Shown here piece after piece: positions 2,331 to 28,359 of a stretch of 64,000 nt of DNA (the first letter of the stretch is position 1; the number at the start of each line of letters is the position of its first letter). Origin of the DNA: Candidatus Poribacteria bacterium. Its GTDB lineage: Bacteria > Poribacteria > WGA-4E > WGA-3G. Location of the stretch: NCBI GenBank assembly GCA_028821605.1, contig JAPPFM010000050.1, forward strand, positions 130,911 to 194,910, given 5' to 3'. The notes under the pieces were generated by a model. It was not told where the DNA came from and did no database searches. It saw nothing but the letters and a program-made list of their open reading frames with translations. The position numbers and the translations under genes were made by a program.

Positions 2331-2750
2331 TTATTCTGCCTTTTCAGCAGATTCGGATGCTTCCTCTTGTGTCTCGGTCTCTTCAGAATCACCTGTTTCA
2401 GATTCTGCCTCTTTTGCCTCAGTAGGTTCGGACTCGTCCGCTTCCACGACCTCTTCTGCGATGTCCTGATCCGGCATCGGTTTTCCCAATTTTTCGTACT
2501 CGAATTTCATCAAAATTCCATTTTGACTGAGTAGACGCTTTGCAGTATCAGAGGGTTGCGCGCCCTCTCTCAACCATTTTAGGGTTTTCTCTTCATCAAT
2601 AAAAACATCTGCCGGATCCGTCATAGGATTGTAATGACCGAGGCGTTCCAAAAACACGCCATCCCTCTGGGCACGTGCATCAGCCGCGACGAGTCGATAA
2701 AACGGACGTTTTTTTCTACCGTGTCGTTGTAATCTAATTCTAACTGCCAA
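2331..2750 (-). CDS. rpsP: Small ribosomal subunit protein bS16 with acidic tail
   Basis: A 30S assembly protein. The S16 core ([20 protein letters not shown], then [12 protein letters not shown] and [12 protein letters not shown]) fills the first 85 or so residues. An in-frame ATG exists at 2771, but the Shine-Dalgarno AGGAGG at 2759-2764 lies inside that extension and is spaced 8 bases from a TTG at 2750, which restores the family N-terminus; I take TTG as start. About 50 C-terminal residues are almost all Glu, Ser, Thr and Ala, an acidic low-complexity tail that ordinary bS16 lacks. Confidence 0.93.
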
Positions 2751-2801
2751 AAAAATACCTCCTAATGGCATTCATGCCGCGTTTATGTTTATAAGAAAAG
2801 C

Positions 2802-2817
2802 GAGTCCCTAAGGACTC
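2802..2817 (-). terminator. Hairpin between ffh and rpsP
   Basis: A perfect 6-bp stem (GAGTCC/GGACTC) with a 4-base loop lies just after the ffh stop and is followed on the minus strand by GCTTTTCTT. It may partly terminate or process the transcript between ffh and the ribosomal genes; the T-run is weak. Confidence 0.45.
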
Positions 2818-2825
2818 ACCTATCG

Positions 2826-4217
2826 CTATCTGCGGCGTTTCCGTTTTCGGGGTTTTCTCGCTGCCTTCCGCTTCGGACGAGGAAGTGCACCCATCTTCTG
2901 CCCCATTTGCGGCATTGCCATCGCCGCCTGCTGGTTCAACATACGATTCATCATCTGGAGTTGTGAAACCAGCATATTTATCTGATTCACCGTCGTCCCG
3001 CTACCTTTGGAAATGCGGAGCTTCCGACTCCTATCTAATAACCGAGGGTTCTTTCGTTCCTCAAGCGTCATTGAATGGATGATCGCCTTCGCCGTTTGCA
3101 AATGGCTCTCATCTGGTGTAAGGTTTTTAACCGGCAACTGATTTTTAAAGGGCATCAGATCCATCAATTGATCTAAGGGACCCATATTTTTAAGCTGCTC
3201 CAGTTGCGTGAGGAAATCGTCAAAATCTAACCCTTTTTGTTCTGTAAGTTTACGTTCAAGTTCTTTTGCCTGATCTTCGCTGAAAACTTCTTCCGCTTTT
3301 TCAAGCAACGTTTGGAAATCACCCTGTCCGAGGATGCGCGAAGACATCCGCTCCGGGTGGAACTCCTCTAACGCCGCTGCCTCAATTTTCTCACCGACCC
3401 CGATGAACTTAATCGGTTTCTGCGTGATATGCCGGATCGAAAGTGCTGCACCACCGCGTGCATCGCCATCCATCTTGGTGAGGATAACGCCGTCAATCTC
3501 CAAATCACTGTTGAAATTTTCGGCGACATTTACGGCATCCTGCCCTGTCATCGCATCGACAATAAGCAGGATTTCAGTAGGTTCAACTCGCTCCTTGATT
3601 TGCCGCAGCTCACCCATCAATGTGTCGTCAATGTGCAGGCGACCGGCAGTGTCAATAATAACGCAGTTATGTCCGTGTGCCAAAGCCTCATCAACAGAGG
3701 CCGCCGCGATGTCAACTGGGGAAACATCCGTTCCCATGGAAAACACCGGTGTGTCGGTCTGTTCACCGAGAACCTGAAGCTGCTTAATGGCAGCAGGTCG
3801 GTATACATCCGCAGCAACGAGCAGCGGTTTACGTCCCTCTTTACGGAACCTCAATGCCAGTTTCGCCGCGACCGTCGTTTTACCGGCACCTTGCAACCCA
3901 GCAAGCATCACCACTGTCGGACCGCTCGGCGCAATGTTAATCTTTTCCGCCTTGCTACCCATCAATTGGGTGAGTTCTTCACCAATGATCCGGGCAATCT
4001 GCAGCTCAGGCGTAAGGCTCCCCAGCACCTCTTGACCAAGGGCACGTTCCTTAATTCGGTCTATAAACTCACGCGTGACTTTATAGTTAACGTCCGCTTC
4101 CAGAAAAGCGCGCCGCACCTCACGCAGCGTATCAGAGATATTACTCTCTGTGAGTTTTCCCTGCCCTTTGATTTTTTTCAGGGTGTTTTGTAAGCGATCA
4201 CCTAAACTTTCAAACAT
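2826..4217 (-). CDS. ffh: Signal recognition particle protein Ffh
   Basis: The GTPase of the signal recognition particle; binds 4.5S RNA and signal sequences and delivers ribosomes to FtsY at the membrane. The 463 residues show the N domain, the G domain with GLQGAGKTT (107-115), DTAGRLHIDDTLMGEL and TKMDGDARGGAALSI, and the methionine-rich M domain starting at about residue 330 (MGPLDQLMDLMPF, later MLVSQLQMMNRML). The last 15 residues are a run of Lys and Arg. First gene of the operon, with a consensus promoter upstream. Confidence 0.97.
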   Translation of the reverse strand: MFESLGDRLQNTLKKIKGQGKLTESNISDTLREVRRAFLEADVNYKVTREFIDRIKERALGQEVLGSLTPELQIARIIGEELTQLMGSKAEKINIAPSGPTVVMLAGLQGAGKTTVAAKLALRFRKEGRKPLLVAADVYRPAAIKQLQVLGEQTDTPVFSMGTDVSPVDIAAASVDEALAHGHNCVIIDTAGRLHIDDTLMGELRQIKERVEPTEILLIVDAMTGQDAVNVAENFNSDLEIDGVILTKMDGDARGGAALSIRHITQKPIKFIGVGEKIEAAALEEFHPERMSSRILGQGDFQTLLEKAEEVFSEDQAKELERKLTEQKGLDFDDFLTQLEQLKNMGPLDQLMDLMPFKNQLPVKNLTPDESHLQTAKAIIHSMTLEERKNPRLLDRSRKLRISKGSGTTVNQINMLVSQLQMMNRMLNQQAAMAMPQMGQKMGALPRPKRKAARKPRKRKRRR

Positions 4218-21054: not shown

Positions 21055-21801
21055 CTAATACGTTGCTCTTCCGCCGCTGACATCGTAGCACTGTCCTGTT
21101 ACAAAACTTGCCTCGTCCGATGCTAAGAAATTCACCACAGCGGCGACTTCCTCCGGTTTTCCAACGCGTCCCAACGGAATCTTACCCACCATATAATCGA
21201 TGGTTGATTGTGCCATACCTTCCAATATCGGTGTTTCGATGACAGCTGGAGACACCGCATTCACGCGGATGTTGTAGTCCGTTACCTCCTTAGCGAGTGC
21301 CTTCGTTAGACAGATGACCCCTGCTTTAGAAACGGAATATGGGATGAGCGTCGGATTACCCTCCTTGCCAGCGATCGAGGCGATGTTCACAATCCTGCCG
21401 TAGTCCTGTGCGATCATTGGAGCAATCACTGCTTTACAGCAGAGAAAAACACCTGTCAGGTTCACACCTATCACGCTGTCCCAATCCGCCTCTTCTAAGT
21501 CCGTCAATGGAAGTGTGCGTCCTGCAATCCCCGCATTGTTGACGAGAATGTCAACACGACCAAAGGTGGAAATAACCTTTTCGACAGCAGCGTTGACATC
21601 GGTGAATACGGAAACATCTGCCTGAACGGGCAGTGCTTTGCGCCCAGTAGATTCAATCTCCTGCGCGACCGTTTCGGCTGCCTCCATGTTTAAATCCATG
21701 ATAGCGACATTCGCGCCTGCGTTTGCCAGTCTGAGGGCAATTGCTTTACCGATACCTTGTCCTGCGCCTGTCACAATCGCAATTTTATCCGTTAGATTCA
21801 T
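21055..21801 (-). CDS. Short-chain dehydrogenase/reductase (FabG-like)
   Basis: The 248-residue classical SDR has TGAGQGIGKA near residue 12 (NAD(P) binding), NNAG near residue 90, the catalytic Ser in NIASIAGKEG, YSVSK (Tyr-x-x-x-Lys) and the usual SDEASFVTGQCYDVSGG end. An acidic residue after the second strand (IMDLNME) suggests NAD preference. The start at 21801 has AGGAGG and overlaps the preceding AhpD-like frame by 17 bases, showing translational coupling. The substrate could be any hydroxyacyl or sugar alcohol; not decided by sequence. Confidence 0.88.
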   Translation of the reverse strand: MNLTDKIAIVTGAGQGIGKAIALRLANAGANVAIMDLNMEAAETVAQEIESTGRKALPVQADVSVFTDVNAAVEKVISTFGRVDILVNNAGIAGRTLPLTDLEEADWDSVIGVNLTGVFLCCKAVIAPMIAQDYGRIVNIASIAGKEGNPTLIPYSVSKAGVICLTKALAKEVTDYNIRVNAVSPAVIETPILEGMAQSTIDYMVGKIPLGRVGKPEEVAAVVNFLASDEASFVTGQCYDVSGGRATY

Positions 21802-22357
21802 TAAAATCCCTCCTGAGTTCCAAAAAATCGTCCAATTTAACACCGAACGCATCCGCTACCCGATTGATGTAACTGAAAAAACCAACGACCTCTACAATAG
21901 CGAAGAGTGCCTCGTCGGTGAGTCCGTAGCTGCGGAGATGTTCAAGGTCTGCTGGTGTAACAGTCGCTGCTGCTTTTGTTACTTTAACAGCAAATTCAAG
22001 GATCGCTTTTGTGGTCTCGTCAATATCAGCCTTGTGAAAATCCGTTACAATCTGTGCAATTTGCGCATCTGTGAATTGTGCCCGCAACTCATCGGCGTGT
22101 GCGATTATTCAGTAGTGGCATTCGTTCACTTTCGAGACAACAGTGGCGATCATTTCCCGTTGCATTCGACTCAGCGGCGAGTCCTCGTCAAACATTATCG
22201 CTATGTAGAGTTCAATGAACGGGCGCATGCTTTTTGGTCGTACGCTGAGAAGTTTGACGATATTGTAAACTTGTCCTGCCCGGGCAGTTGCAGCGTCGTA
22301 TTCCTCTTTCACGATGCCGGTTGCTTCGGCTTCATCTACAGTGCGAATCCATGCCAT
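21785..22357 (-). CDS. AhpD/carboxymuconolactone-decarboxylase-like protein with in-frame TGA, candidate selenoprotein
   Basis: The frame reads through a TGA at 22111-22109. Before it is REMIATVVSKVNECHY and after it IIAHADELR, so the motif is C-H-Y-TGA-I-I-A-H. The AhpD/peroxidase-related family has C-x-x-C-x-x-x-H here, so the TGA takes exactly the place of the second redox Cys (residue 83 of 190). Selenocysteine is known at that site in AhpD-like proteins of other bacteria. A possible bacterial SECIS hairpin (22096-22080, stem GCCG/CGG-G-C, loop ATGAGTTG) begins 12 bases past the TGA. The alternative is a nonsense mutation or base-call error. Start at 22357 behind GGAGAG, right after the upstream stop. 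Middle gene of three. Confidence 0.72.
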
Positions 22358-22358
22358 T

Positions 22359-23588
22359 TTACTCTCCAATCACGACGCCGTATTCACCGACAACCGCGCC
22401 TTTATGTCCCGTCTGGTAGTGTAGATGTCTTTCACCGACGATAGGTTGTGTGCTTTGTACTTCCACTGTGCCTCGGACTTTCCCCATCGCGCCTTCATCC
22501 ATATCAACACAACAAAAAGGCTTAATTTGGCGATGCACTTGCCGCTTAATTTCCCCTTGTCGGTTGCGGACGATAACGTTGACAAGTGCGTCTGCTTCGC
22601 CAACATTAAGGAATCGGAACCAGTCCCAAGCGCCGCCAGCAATTTCAGGAAAAAAGAGTCGTATCCCAACCTGCCCTCCCTCCACCGATGCTCCGGGGAG
22701 GTCGACAATGGCTGTTCCACTGTGCATGTGTCGTTCGGCGACAACTGGCTGATCGCTACGGACCTCTACGGAGGAATTTACATTAATGTCGTCTATAGGA
22801 GGTGTCCAACACTGAAAAGGTCTCAGTCCGTCGAATTTTTTTGTCCATGTGGCTTGCGCGTTGTCATCTTTACGTGCGACCATCGTCACTTCCGCTTCTT
22901 CTGTTCCAACGTTGACGATCACGACCCAATCTTGCCATGCGGGTCCGACCTCTGGGAAAAAGAGTGTACGGGGCGCGTCTGAAATCACTTGTCCGAACTG
23001 CCCGACACATGTCTTTCCTCCTTGATAGTGGAGATGGCGTTCACCAACAATGGGTTGTGAACTTTGCATCTCAACTGTGCCGGTGACGTTCCCCATAACA
23101 CCCTCGTTGAGATCCCAACAACAGAGAGGATCTATAACGTGGTGTCGCTGCCTGAGTACATCGCCATTTCTGTTTCGGACAGTGATGTTGACGTGCGCAT
23201 CCGCTTCACCGACGTTTAGAACCCGAAACCAATCGTGGGCACCAGAAACTAATTCTGGGAAGAAGAGTCGTTGTCCGACTGTTTCATACTCTTCAGCTGC
23301 CCCGACAAAATCAAGGACATTCGTACCTTGGTGCATGTGCCGTTCTGCCACAATCGGTTCATCCGCAGTGAACTGCATAGAGGAGTTCTCTTTAATCTCC
23401 TCAACGTTTGGTATCCAGGACTCGAAGGAACTTATCGTTTTTTCCGCGGACCAAGTCGGTTGTCCGTTACGGGCATGTCTCGCTATCGCAGTTACACGGG
23501 TATCTTCAGTACCCACGTTCGTAACTTGGACCCAGTCTTGCCATTGGGGTCCTACTTCTGGAAAATAAAGGGTCGTTGCTCCTGGCAT
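22359..23588 (-). CDS. Four-repeat beta-rich protein of unknown function
   Basis: I do not recognise a named family. The 409 residues are four tandem units of about 100 residues starting near 1, 107, 207 and 310. They alternate in type: units 1 and 3 have FPEVGPxWQDWV and PIVAERHMH or PVVAERHMH, units 2 and 4 have LFFPE...DWFRxLNVGEADA and PIVGERHLHYQ. Each looks like a beta-sandwich. There is no signal peptide although the style is that of a surface protein. It heads the operon with the AhpD-like and SDR genes (spacing under 2 bases to the next start), so it may act with a redox enzyme. Confidence 0.7.
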   Translation of the reverse strand: MPGATTLYFPEVGPQWQDWVQVTNVGTEDTRVTAIARHARNGQPTWSAEKTISSFESWIPNVEEIKENSSMQFTADEPIVAERHMHQGTNVLDFVGAAEEYETVGQRLFFPELVSGAHDWFRVLNVGEADAHVNITVRNRNGDVLRQRHHVIDPLCCWDLNEGVMGNVTGTVEMQSSQPIVGERHLHYQGGKTCVGQFGQVISDAPRTLFFPEVGPAWQDWVVIVNVGTEEAEVTMVARKDDNAQATWTKKFDGLRPFQCWTPPIDDINVNSSVEVRSDQPVVAERHMHSGTAIVDLPGASVEGGQVGIRLFFPEIAGGAWDWFRFLNVGEADALVNVIVRNRQGEIKRQVHRQIKPFCCVDMDEGAMGKVRGTVEVQSTQPIVGERHLHYQTGHKGAVVGEYGVVIGE

Positions 23589-27216: not shown

Positions 27217-28359
27217 TTACATCAATTCAACAAAAACTTCGTTTGCGAGGAAGAGTCCGCGGGATGTGAGCCGGAGATGGGTGGGGGTACGTTCCAGCAG
27301 CTGCAAATCCATCCATTTTTTGACGATGTTACCAAAGGCAACTTCAATTTCTTCACCGAATCGGTCTTGATAGGTTTCAAACGAGATGCCTTCGCGTTTC
27401 CGAAGCGCGAGCATGAGCGTTTCCGCTTTCTCAGCAGGTCCGGTGAGATGTTCGGCATCGGCGATAGGTTTGTTGCGTTGGGAGAGTGCATCAATATAAG
27501 GCGCGATGCCTCGAATGTTAGTATAACGCACGCCGTTGACATATCCACACGCACCGGCACCGAGTCCGATACACGACTGGTTGTTCCAATAGACGAGGTT
27601 GTGTCTCGCGAGGTGATTCAGTTTGGCGAAGTTACAGATTTCGTAATGCGTGTACCCGTGGGCGGTGAGCGTCTCAATCGTGTATTGGAACATATCGGCT
27701 TCGGTGTCCTCGGTTGGGAGGCGGAGTTCACCGGCTTGCCACCATTCATAAAACGGGGTTTCCTCCTCCATGACGAGGTTATATGCTGAGATGTGGTTGG
27801 GTTCCAGAGAGATGACTTCGTTGAGGGTATGATGCCATGCTTCCATCGTTTGGTCGGGCAGTGCGAAGATGAGGTCGATGTTGATGTTATCGAAACGGTG
27901 TTCGCTGGCGAGGTGGTAACTCTGGAGGAATTCGTCAACACTGTGGATTCTGCCTAACTGTTGCAAGGTTTCGTCTTGCATGGCTTGTAGCCCGAAACTG
28001 AGGCGATTCACACCGTTGTCTTGCATCACGTTGAGTTTCTCGCTATCAACGGTACCGGGATTACATTCTACGGTGATCTCCGCATTCGGCGTTAGTTGGA
28101 AATATTCATGTATATCGGTGAATAACTGCGCTAAGGCGTTAGCAGAAAGGATAGAAGGTGTGCCACCGCCAATGAAAATCGTTTGTAGTGGGTCGGTATC
28201 TGGGGCGTAAAGTGCTATCTCTGTACGGAGTGCTTGTAGATATGCCTTCGCTTGTTCCTTGTGGAAGGTGTAGGTATTGAAGGCGCAATAGTAGCATTTC
28301 GTCGCGCAGAATGGGATGTGGATGTATATGGAAGTGGCGGTTTTATGCGGATGATTCAT
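27217..28359 (-). CDS. hemW: Haem chaperone HemW-like radical SAM protein
   Basis: 380 residues. The radical-SAM cluster motif is CATKCYYC (residues about 18-25), and the first part reads YIHIPFCATKCYYCAF as in HemW, where the fourth Cys of HemN (C-x-C) is replaced. GGGTPS near residue 62 and the later NLVYWNNQSCIGLGAGA are typical. HemW delivers haem to acceptors; the true coproporphyrinogen oxidase HemN is longer. The first 59 codons of the longest frame lie inside the next gene and do not fit; the ATG at 28359 overlaps the dehydrogenase stop by 17 bases. Confidence 0.9.
   Translation of the reverse strand: MNHPHKTATSIYIHIPFCATKCYYCAFNTYTFHKEQAKAYLQALRTEIALYAPDTDPLQTIFIGGGTPSILSANALAQLFTDIHEYFQLTPNAEITVECNPGTVDSEKLNVMQDNGVNRLSFGLQAMQDETLQQLGRIHSVDEFLQSYHLASEHRFDNINIDLIFALPDQTMEAWHHTLNEVISLEPNHISAYNLVMEEETPFYEWWQAGELRLPTEDTEADMFQYTIETLTAHGYTHYEICNFAKLNHLARHNLVYWNNQSCIGLGAGACGYVNGVRYTNIRGIAPYIDALSQRNKPIADAEHLTGPAEKAETLMLALRKREGISFETYQDRFGEEIEVAFGNIVKKWMDLQLLERTPTHLRLTSRGLFLANEVFVELM

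What the first reader, a model, noticed from the sequence alone, without database searches (positions are those of the whole stretch)
21785..22357. AhpD-like peroxidase with TGA at the second redox Cys: candidate selenoprotein
Seen: one frame, no shift, only a TGA splits it, and the residues around it are C-H-Y-TGA-I-I-A-H. Known: AhpD and peroxidase-related enzymes have C-x-x-C-x-x-x-H here, and AhpD-like selenoproteins are known. The chance that a random stop falls on this residue is small. A possible SECIS-like hairpin (22096-22080) begins 12 bases after the TGA, with its apical loop (22092-22085) starting 17 bases after it, in the usual bacterial range. If true, this phylum makes selenocysteine and uses it in a peroxidase in an operon with a novel repeat protein and an SDR.
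Basis: partly seen in the sequence, partly recalled or inferred. Interest (0 to 1): 0.82.

Follow-up and report, generated by a model that had tools for sequence, protein, structure and literature searches.

The report
Selenocysteine AhpD-like protein in Poribacteria
The stop codon in the middle of this antioxidant-type gene from a sponge-associated bacterium is real and is read as selenocysteine: the genome has the full selenocysteine machinery, about 44 related genes keep the codon, and the RNA hairpin that recodes it is conserved, although this kind of selenoprotein was already known from other bacteria.

Summary
Window 22357-21785 (- strand) is one open frame of 190 codons. It is split only by TGA at 22111-22109, exactly at the second redox Cys of a TIGR01926 peroxidase-related (AhpD-like) protein.

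The genome, a Poribacteria MAG, encodes tRNA-Sec (UCA), SelB next to it, SelA, and a SelD that is itself a selenoprotein. All about 44 Poribacteria homologues at >=54% identity carry TGA here and none carries Cys. Codons after the TGA are under the same purifying selection as those before it. More distant homologues in other phyla have either TGA or Cys at the site.

The supported SECIS is 22091-22085 / loop 22084-22079 / 22078-22072. Its loop starts 25 nt after the UGA and contains GG, and its stem shows compensatory changes.

AhpD-like CxxU selenoproteins of this same family have been known since 2005, so this is a new member of a known kind. No paper in the searched library links Poribacteria with selenoproteins.

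Extras: the gene sits in a conserved repeat-protein/AhpD/SDR cluster; six congeneric genomes carry different deletion scars of it; and the genome has at least five other UGA-containing peroxiredoxin/thioredoxin-fold genes. Peroxidase or redox-adaptor function is inferred, not shown.

The parts
21785..22357 (-). CDS of the AhpD-like (TIGR01926) selenoprotein, 190 aa, ATG 22357-22355, TAA 21787-21785
22109..22111 (-). in-frame TGA, Sec83, at the second Cys of the CxxC motif
   Evidence: TGA in all readable Poribacteria homologues; Cys in solved family members and in L102-L104
22072..22091 (-). SECIS hairpin: 5' arm 22091-22085 (UGAGUUG), loop 22084-22079 (CGGGCA), 3' arm 22078-22072 (CAAUUCA)
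   Evidence: covariation counts, independent RNAalifold consensus, single-sequence folds
22118..22120 (-). Cys80 codon, partner of Sec83
   Evidence: invariant in alignment of 29 homologues
22154..22156 (-). Glu68 codon, counterpart of AhpD Glu118
   Evidence: invariant; E-x11-C-x2-U-x3-H spacing
22097..22099 (-). His87 codon, counterpart of AhpD His137
   Evidence: invariant
22359..23588 (-). upstream gene, 409-aa repeat protein without Pfam or NCBIfam match; its stop lies 1 base before the AhpD start
21055..21801 (-). downstream SDR oxidoreductase (FabG-like), overlaps the end of the selenoprotein gene by 17 bases; Shine-Dalgarno-like AGGAGG at 21814-21809

Best explanation
This is a genuine selenoprotein gene. 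It encodes a cytosolic-type, all-helical AhpD-like (TIGR01926, 'peroxidase-related') thiol oxidoreductase whose C-terminal redox Cys is Sec. SelB with Sec-tRNA(UCA) bound to a hairpin 18-37 nt after UGA83 decodes the UGA as Sec. Inferred mechanism: Glu68/Tyr82/His87 form the AhpD proton relay. The Sec83 selenolate attacks a hydroperoxide (or an oxidised partner) and becomes a selenenic acid. Cys80 resolves it to a selenylsulfide, which a thiol reductant reduces. Shown: the gene, the machinery, the conserved UGA and SECIS, and the catalytic residues. Inferred: actual Sec insertion, the substrate, the reductant, and any link to the repeat protein and SDR next to it.
For: tRNA-Sec 78.1 bits with anticodon TCA; SelB 352.9 bits on the same contig, 287 bases from tRNA-Sec; SelA 600 bits; SelD 358.6 bits with its own in-frame TGA. 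About 44 Poribacteria homologues all have TGA. Third-position bias is the same before and after the TGA, 0.69 against 0.68 of differences, so both parts are translated in one frame. SECIS covariation: 16 both-sided cells against 3.8 shuffled, 0/500 shuffles as high. E68, C80, U83 and H87 are invariant across 29 homologues and match AhpD Glu118, Cys130, Cys133, His137 (PMC3141380). Homologues with true Cys exist in other phyla. The best solved-structure matches are 2pfx, 3c1l, 2prr and 6k40, all peroxidase-related/AhpD. The genome has further UGA-containing Prx/Trx-fold genes.
Against: There are no protein data. Three MAGs of at least 94% completeness that hold the gene (G024, G030, G033) lack a tRNA-Sec hit. 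However, each has SelB and a UGA-containing SelD, and two have SelA, so assembly gaps are likelier than loss of the trait. One distant relative (G067) carries extra in-frame stops. Peroxidase activity is not demonstrated for the close family in anything read here.
Confidence: 0.93

Rival explanations
1. The TGA is a sequencing or assembly error, or the gene is a pseudogene.
For: Single MAG; one distant relative with several stops and six congeners with deleted copies show that the gene does decay in some lineages.
Against: The same TGA is in about 44 independently assembled Poribacteria genomes, purifying selection continues after it, and the SECIS covaries.
Confidence: 0.01
2. TGA is reassigned genome-wide (for example to Trp) or is read through by a near-cognate tRNA without a SECIS.
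For: An open frame under another code would look alike.
Against: A scan of the window finds no other convincing TGA-split gene. The site is Cys, not Trp, in homologues. The complete Sec machinery and a covarying SECIS are present.
Confidence: 0.01
3. Selenol dehalogenase: the fold and the reactive C-terminal chalcogen serve reductive dehalogenation, as in the AhpD-fold debrominase Bmp8, here on halogenated compounds of the sponge host.
For: Bmp8 (6ohi, 6ohj) is a structural and profile match (Foldseek E 6e-4; hmmsearch 5e-7). The C82A mutant chain 6ohj scores 6.2 bits lower, so Bmp8's mutated Cys falls in a strongly conserved column. Many Poribacteria are sponge symbionts, and halogenated-compound turnover is reported in a sponge microbiome (PMC6081418).
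Against: Bmp8 is only about 18% identical and ranks well below the peroxidase-related group at 30-36%. There is no substrate evidence. The same Sec family occurs in other phyla, whose ways of life were not examined.
Confidence: 0.06
4. The UGA acts as a selenium-dependent regulatory stop: without selenium, translation ends after 82 residues, and translation of the overlapping SDR, coupled to read-through, falls.
For: The SDR start overlaps the end of the selenoprotein gene by 17 bases in the window, and the gene pair is conserved.
Against: The SDR has its own AGGAGG. In many relatives it starts 5-30 bases after the selenoprotein's matched end. Deleted copies keep only the SDR's ribosome-binding end. 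The full protein is conserved as an enzyme.
Confidence: 0.04

Closest known systems
AhpD-like selenoprotein family, COG2128/TIGR01926, motif CxxU (Sargasso Sea 2005, PMC1088965; GOS 2008, PMC2398784; review PMC13188914)
   Same: Same family model (158.9 bits to TIGR01926), Sec at the same second redox position (CxxU), bacterial SECIS after the UGA
   Different: Described mainly from metagenomes. Here it is in Poribacteria, in a conserved repeat-protein/AhpD/SDR cluster, with a phylum-wide SECIS alignment; I found no paper tying Poribacteria to selenoproteins
NF041238 alkylhydroperoxidase-related (seleno)protein, CFYUT motif
   Same: AhpD fold, CxxU
   Different: 80.2 bits, below its cut-off of 175; different length and motif (CHYUI here): not a member
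Peroxidase-related proteins of solved structure (2pfx, 3c1l, 2prr, 2oyo, 6k40)
   Same: Closest solved relatives, about 30-36% identical, same N-x-C-x-Y-C-x-x-x-H site
   Different: Cys where this protein has Sec
Mycobacterium tuberculosis AhpD (1gu9, 1knc)
   Same: E-x11-C-x2-C-x3-H catalytic layout (PMC3141380)
   Different: Distant (11-14% identity), active site at the C-terminal end, His instead of Tyr between the two cysteines
Debrominase Bmp8 (6ohi)
   Same: AhpD fold with a conserved Cys motif
   Different: About 18% identical, thiol not selenol, a lead only

Membership tests
AhpD-like selenoprotein (TIGR01926, CxxU) | whole-protein match to TIGR01926 above the curated cut-off | tested here: met
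   158.9 bits against 81.8
AhpD-like selenoprotein (TIGR01926, CxxU) | in-frame TGA at the second Cys, with Cys homologues elsewhere | tested here: met
AhpD-like selenoprotein (TIGR01926, CxxU) | bacterial SECIS just downstream, small apical loop with G | tested here: met
   stem 22091-22085/22078-22072, loop CGGGCA; covariation
AhpD-like selenoprotein (TIGR01926, CxxU) | SelA, SelB, SelD and tRNA-Sec in the genome | tested here: met
AhpD-like selenoprotein (TIGR01926, CxxU) | Sec present in the protein | not testable with these tools
   needs mass spectrometry or 75Se labelling
AhpD alkylhydroperoxidase (enzyme activity) | E-x11-C-x2-C/U-x3-H catalytic set | tested here: met
   E68, C80, U83, H87 invariant in 29 homologues; residue roles from PMC3141380
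AhpD alkylhydroperoxidase (enzyme activity) | peroxidase or AhpC-reducing activity | not testable with these tools
   needs assay
NF041238 CFYUT selenoprotein | score above curated cut-off | tested here: not met
   80.2 against 175 bits
Bmp8-type debrominase | reductive debromination activity | not testable with these tools
   only a distant fold and profile match

The most novel reading that the evidence does not exclude
The Sec enzyme is a selenol-based dehalogenase, or another selenol-specific detoxifier of host metabolites, rather than a peroxidase: a bacterial analogue of deiodinase chemistry on the AhpD fold, kept by sponge symbionts in a cluster with an SDR and lost where not needed.
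Probability: 0.05. Interest if true: 0.8.

Novelty: new member of a known kind. Interest (0 to 1): 0.42.

Why it matters
It adds Poribacteria, a largely sponge-associated and uncultured phylum, to the organisms with strong genomic evidence for making selenocysteine, apparently for a whole set of peroxiredoxin-like enzymes. It shows a Sec gene that standard annotation would cut into an 82-residue stub and a fragment. It also gives a natural series of TGA, Cys and deleted forms in which to ask why Sec is kept at this site.

Tried and rejected
Other TGA-split genes in the window: none convincing; the top hit at 27787 lies antisense to a long, conserved-looking ORF. Papers on Bmp8 and on tetrabromopyrrole debrominase: none held. 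A search for a paper linking Poribacteria with selenoproteins found none, and the selenium/selenocysteine co-mentions listed were not about it as far as titles and abstract openings show. Structure model: mean pLDDT 76.8, with a weak N-terminus and C-terminal end; used only for fold assignment, and the large rmsd (about 9 A) to the best matches shows the chain ends are unreliable. No Sec/Cys tree was built, so the number of Sec-to-Cys switches is unknown.

Full report
What was claimed. A frame on the minus strand (22357-21785) is split only by TGA at the second redox Cys of an AhpD-like protein, with a SECIS-like hairpin after it.

The frame. Translation with TGA as a residue gives 190 residues with one TGA, codon 83 at 22111-22109, in the context CHY-U-IIAH. 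Pfam gives CMD (44.1 bits, cut-off 23). NCBIfam gives TIGR01926 peroxidase-related enzyme, 158.9 bits against a cut-off of 81.8, covering residues 2-174, so the match runs straight across the TGA.

Machinery. The window lies in a 6.0-Mb MAG, 98% complete. Named relatives at 59-96% identity are all Candidatus Poribacteria; one further 23% match is an alphaproteobacterium. The genome has tRNA-Sec (78.1 bits, anticodon TCA), SelB on the same contig 287 bases away (352.9 bits), SelA (600 bits) and SelD (358.6 bits), which itself has an in-frame TGA in the motif CAGU. tRNA-Sec is nearly universal among the related genomes. A few gene-bearing MAGs lack a tRNA-Sec hit. The three most complete of them still have SelB and a UGA-containing SelD, which points to assembly gaps.

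Conservation. In 289 genomes, about 44 Poribacteria homologues at 54-99% identity were found. Every one has a TGA inside the frame and none is a plain Cys version. For the 64 loci read base by base, the TGA is always at this codon; the two collections overlap, so this is about 35 distinct genomes. Codon-position bias of differences is the same upstream (0.17/0.14/0.69) and downstream (0.20/0.12/0.68) of the TGA. Outside the phylum, among the strongest matches, both TGA and no-stop forms occur; the loci examined (L098-L101 TGA, L102-L104 Cys) have TGA or Cys exactly at this column.

SECIS. Single-sequence folds, the RNAalifold consensus and pair counting agree on a 7-bp stem at columns 30-36/43-49. 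In the window this is 22091-22085 / loop CGGGCA 22084-22079 / 22078-22072. 97.2% of cells pair, against 25-40% when the partner is slid. Pair 33:46 appears as GC, AU, GU, CG and UG; pair 34:45 as UA, CG and UG; pair 30:49 once changes on both sides (UA to GC). The loop begins 25 nt after the UGA and carries G, the feature described for bacterial SECIS elements (PMC1088965).

Mechanism. The layout E68-x11-C80-x-Y82-U83-x3-H87 matches the five-residue relay of AhpD (Glu118, Cys130, His132, Cys133, His137) and of P. aeruginosa PA0269 (Glu36, Cys48, Tyr50, Cys51, His55) (PMC3141380). E68, C80, U/C83 and H87 are invariant in 29 homologues and Y82 nearly so. The nearest solved structures are the 'peroxidase-related' proteins 2pfx, 3c1l, 2prr and 6k40. 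I infer that Sec83 is the attacking residue and Cys80 the resolving one. Substrate and reductant are unknown.

Neighbourhood. An uncharacterised repeat protein (stop 1 base before the start) and a FabG-like SDR (overlapping the end by 17 bases) flank the gene in nearly all of the Poribacteria loci of the closer families that were examined; the more distant L070 and L082-L084 do not show this arrangement. In six congeneric genomes (L089-L094) the repeat protein and the SDR remain, and only a scar of the AhpD gene lies between them. The end-points differ between genomes, and the part kept always includes the ribosome-binding stretch of the SDR. The differing end-points suggest several independent losses; this was not tested on a tree. 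tRNA-Sec is still present in those six genomes.

Wider selenoproteome. A search with AhpC-TSA found six UGA-containing domains in five other genes of this genome, each with the UGA at the active-site position (for example FTGG-U-TAELC, YRGGW-U-PFC). One gene has two Prx domains and two UGA codons. These were found in passing and their UGA conservation was not tested.

Known or new. AhpD-like CxxU selenoproteins of COG2128/TIGR01926 were reported in 2005 (PMC1088965), found to be abundant in GOS (PMC2398784) and are listed in a 2026 review (PMC13188914). The family is therefore known. I found no paper linking Poribacteria to selenoproteins in the library, but subscription journals are missing from it. 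Verdict: a real selenoprotein, a new member of a known kind, with a corrected SECIS.

Noticed in passing
L089-L094 (between the repeat protein and the SDR): Six congeneric genomes have lost the selenoprotein gene through deletions with different end-points. Short in-place scars remain, and the SDR's ribosome-binding end is always kept.
   Followed up: partly
L110/L114 (G000:C2:244890-245708), L111, L113, L117, L118: Five further peroxiredoxin/thioredoxin-fold genes with in-frame TGA at the active-site position. One is a double-domain gene with two TGA codons.
   Followed up: partly
L020 (G000:C30:71300-72223): SelD of this genome is itself a UGA-containing selenoprotein (CAGU).
   Followed up: yes
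window 22359-23588 (-): 409-aa protein of internal repeats with no Pfam or NCBIfam match, conserved at 73-94% in Poribacteria directly upstream of the selenoprotein.
   Followed up: partly
G024, G030, G033, G034, G052, G057: MAGs with the TGA gene but no tRNA-Sec hit. Three are at least 94% complete and keep SelB and SelD, so assembly gaps are probable.
   Followed up: yes
L097 (G067, 2720-3205): A distant relative with an extra TAG inside the SECIS 3' arm and a second TGA, so probably a decaying copy.
   Followed up: no
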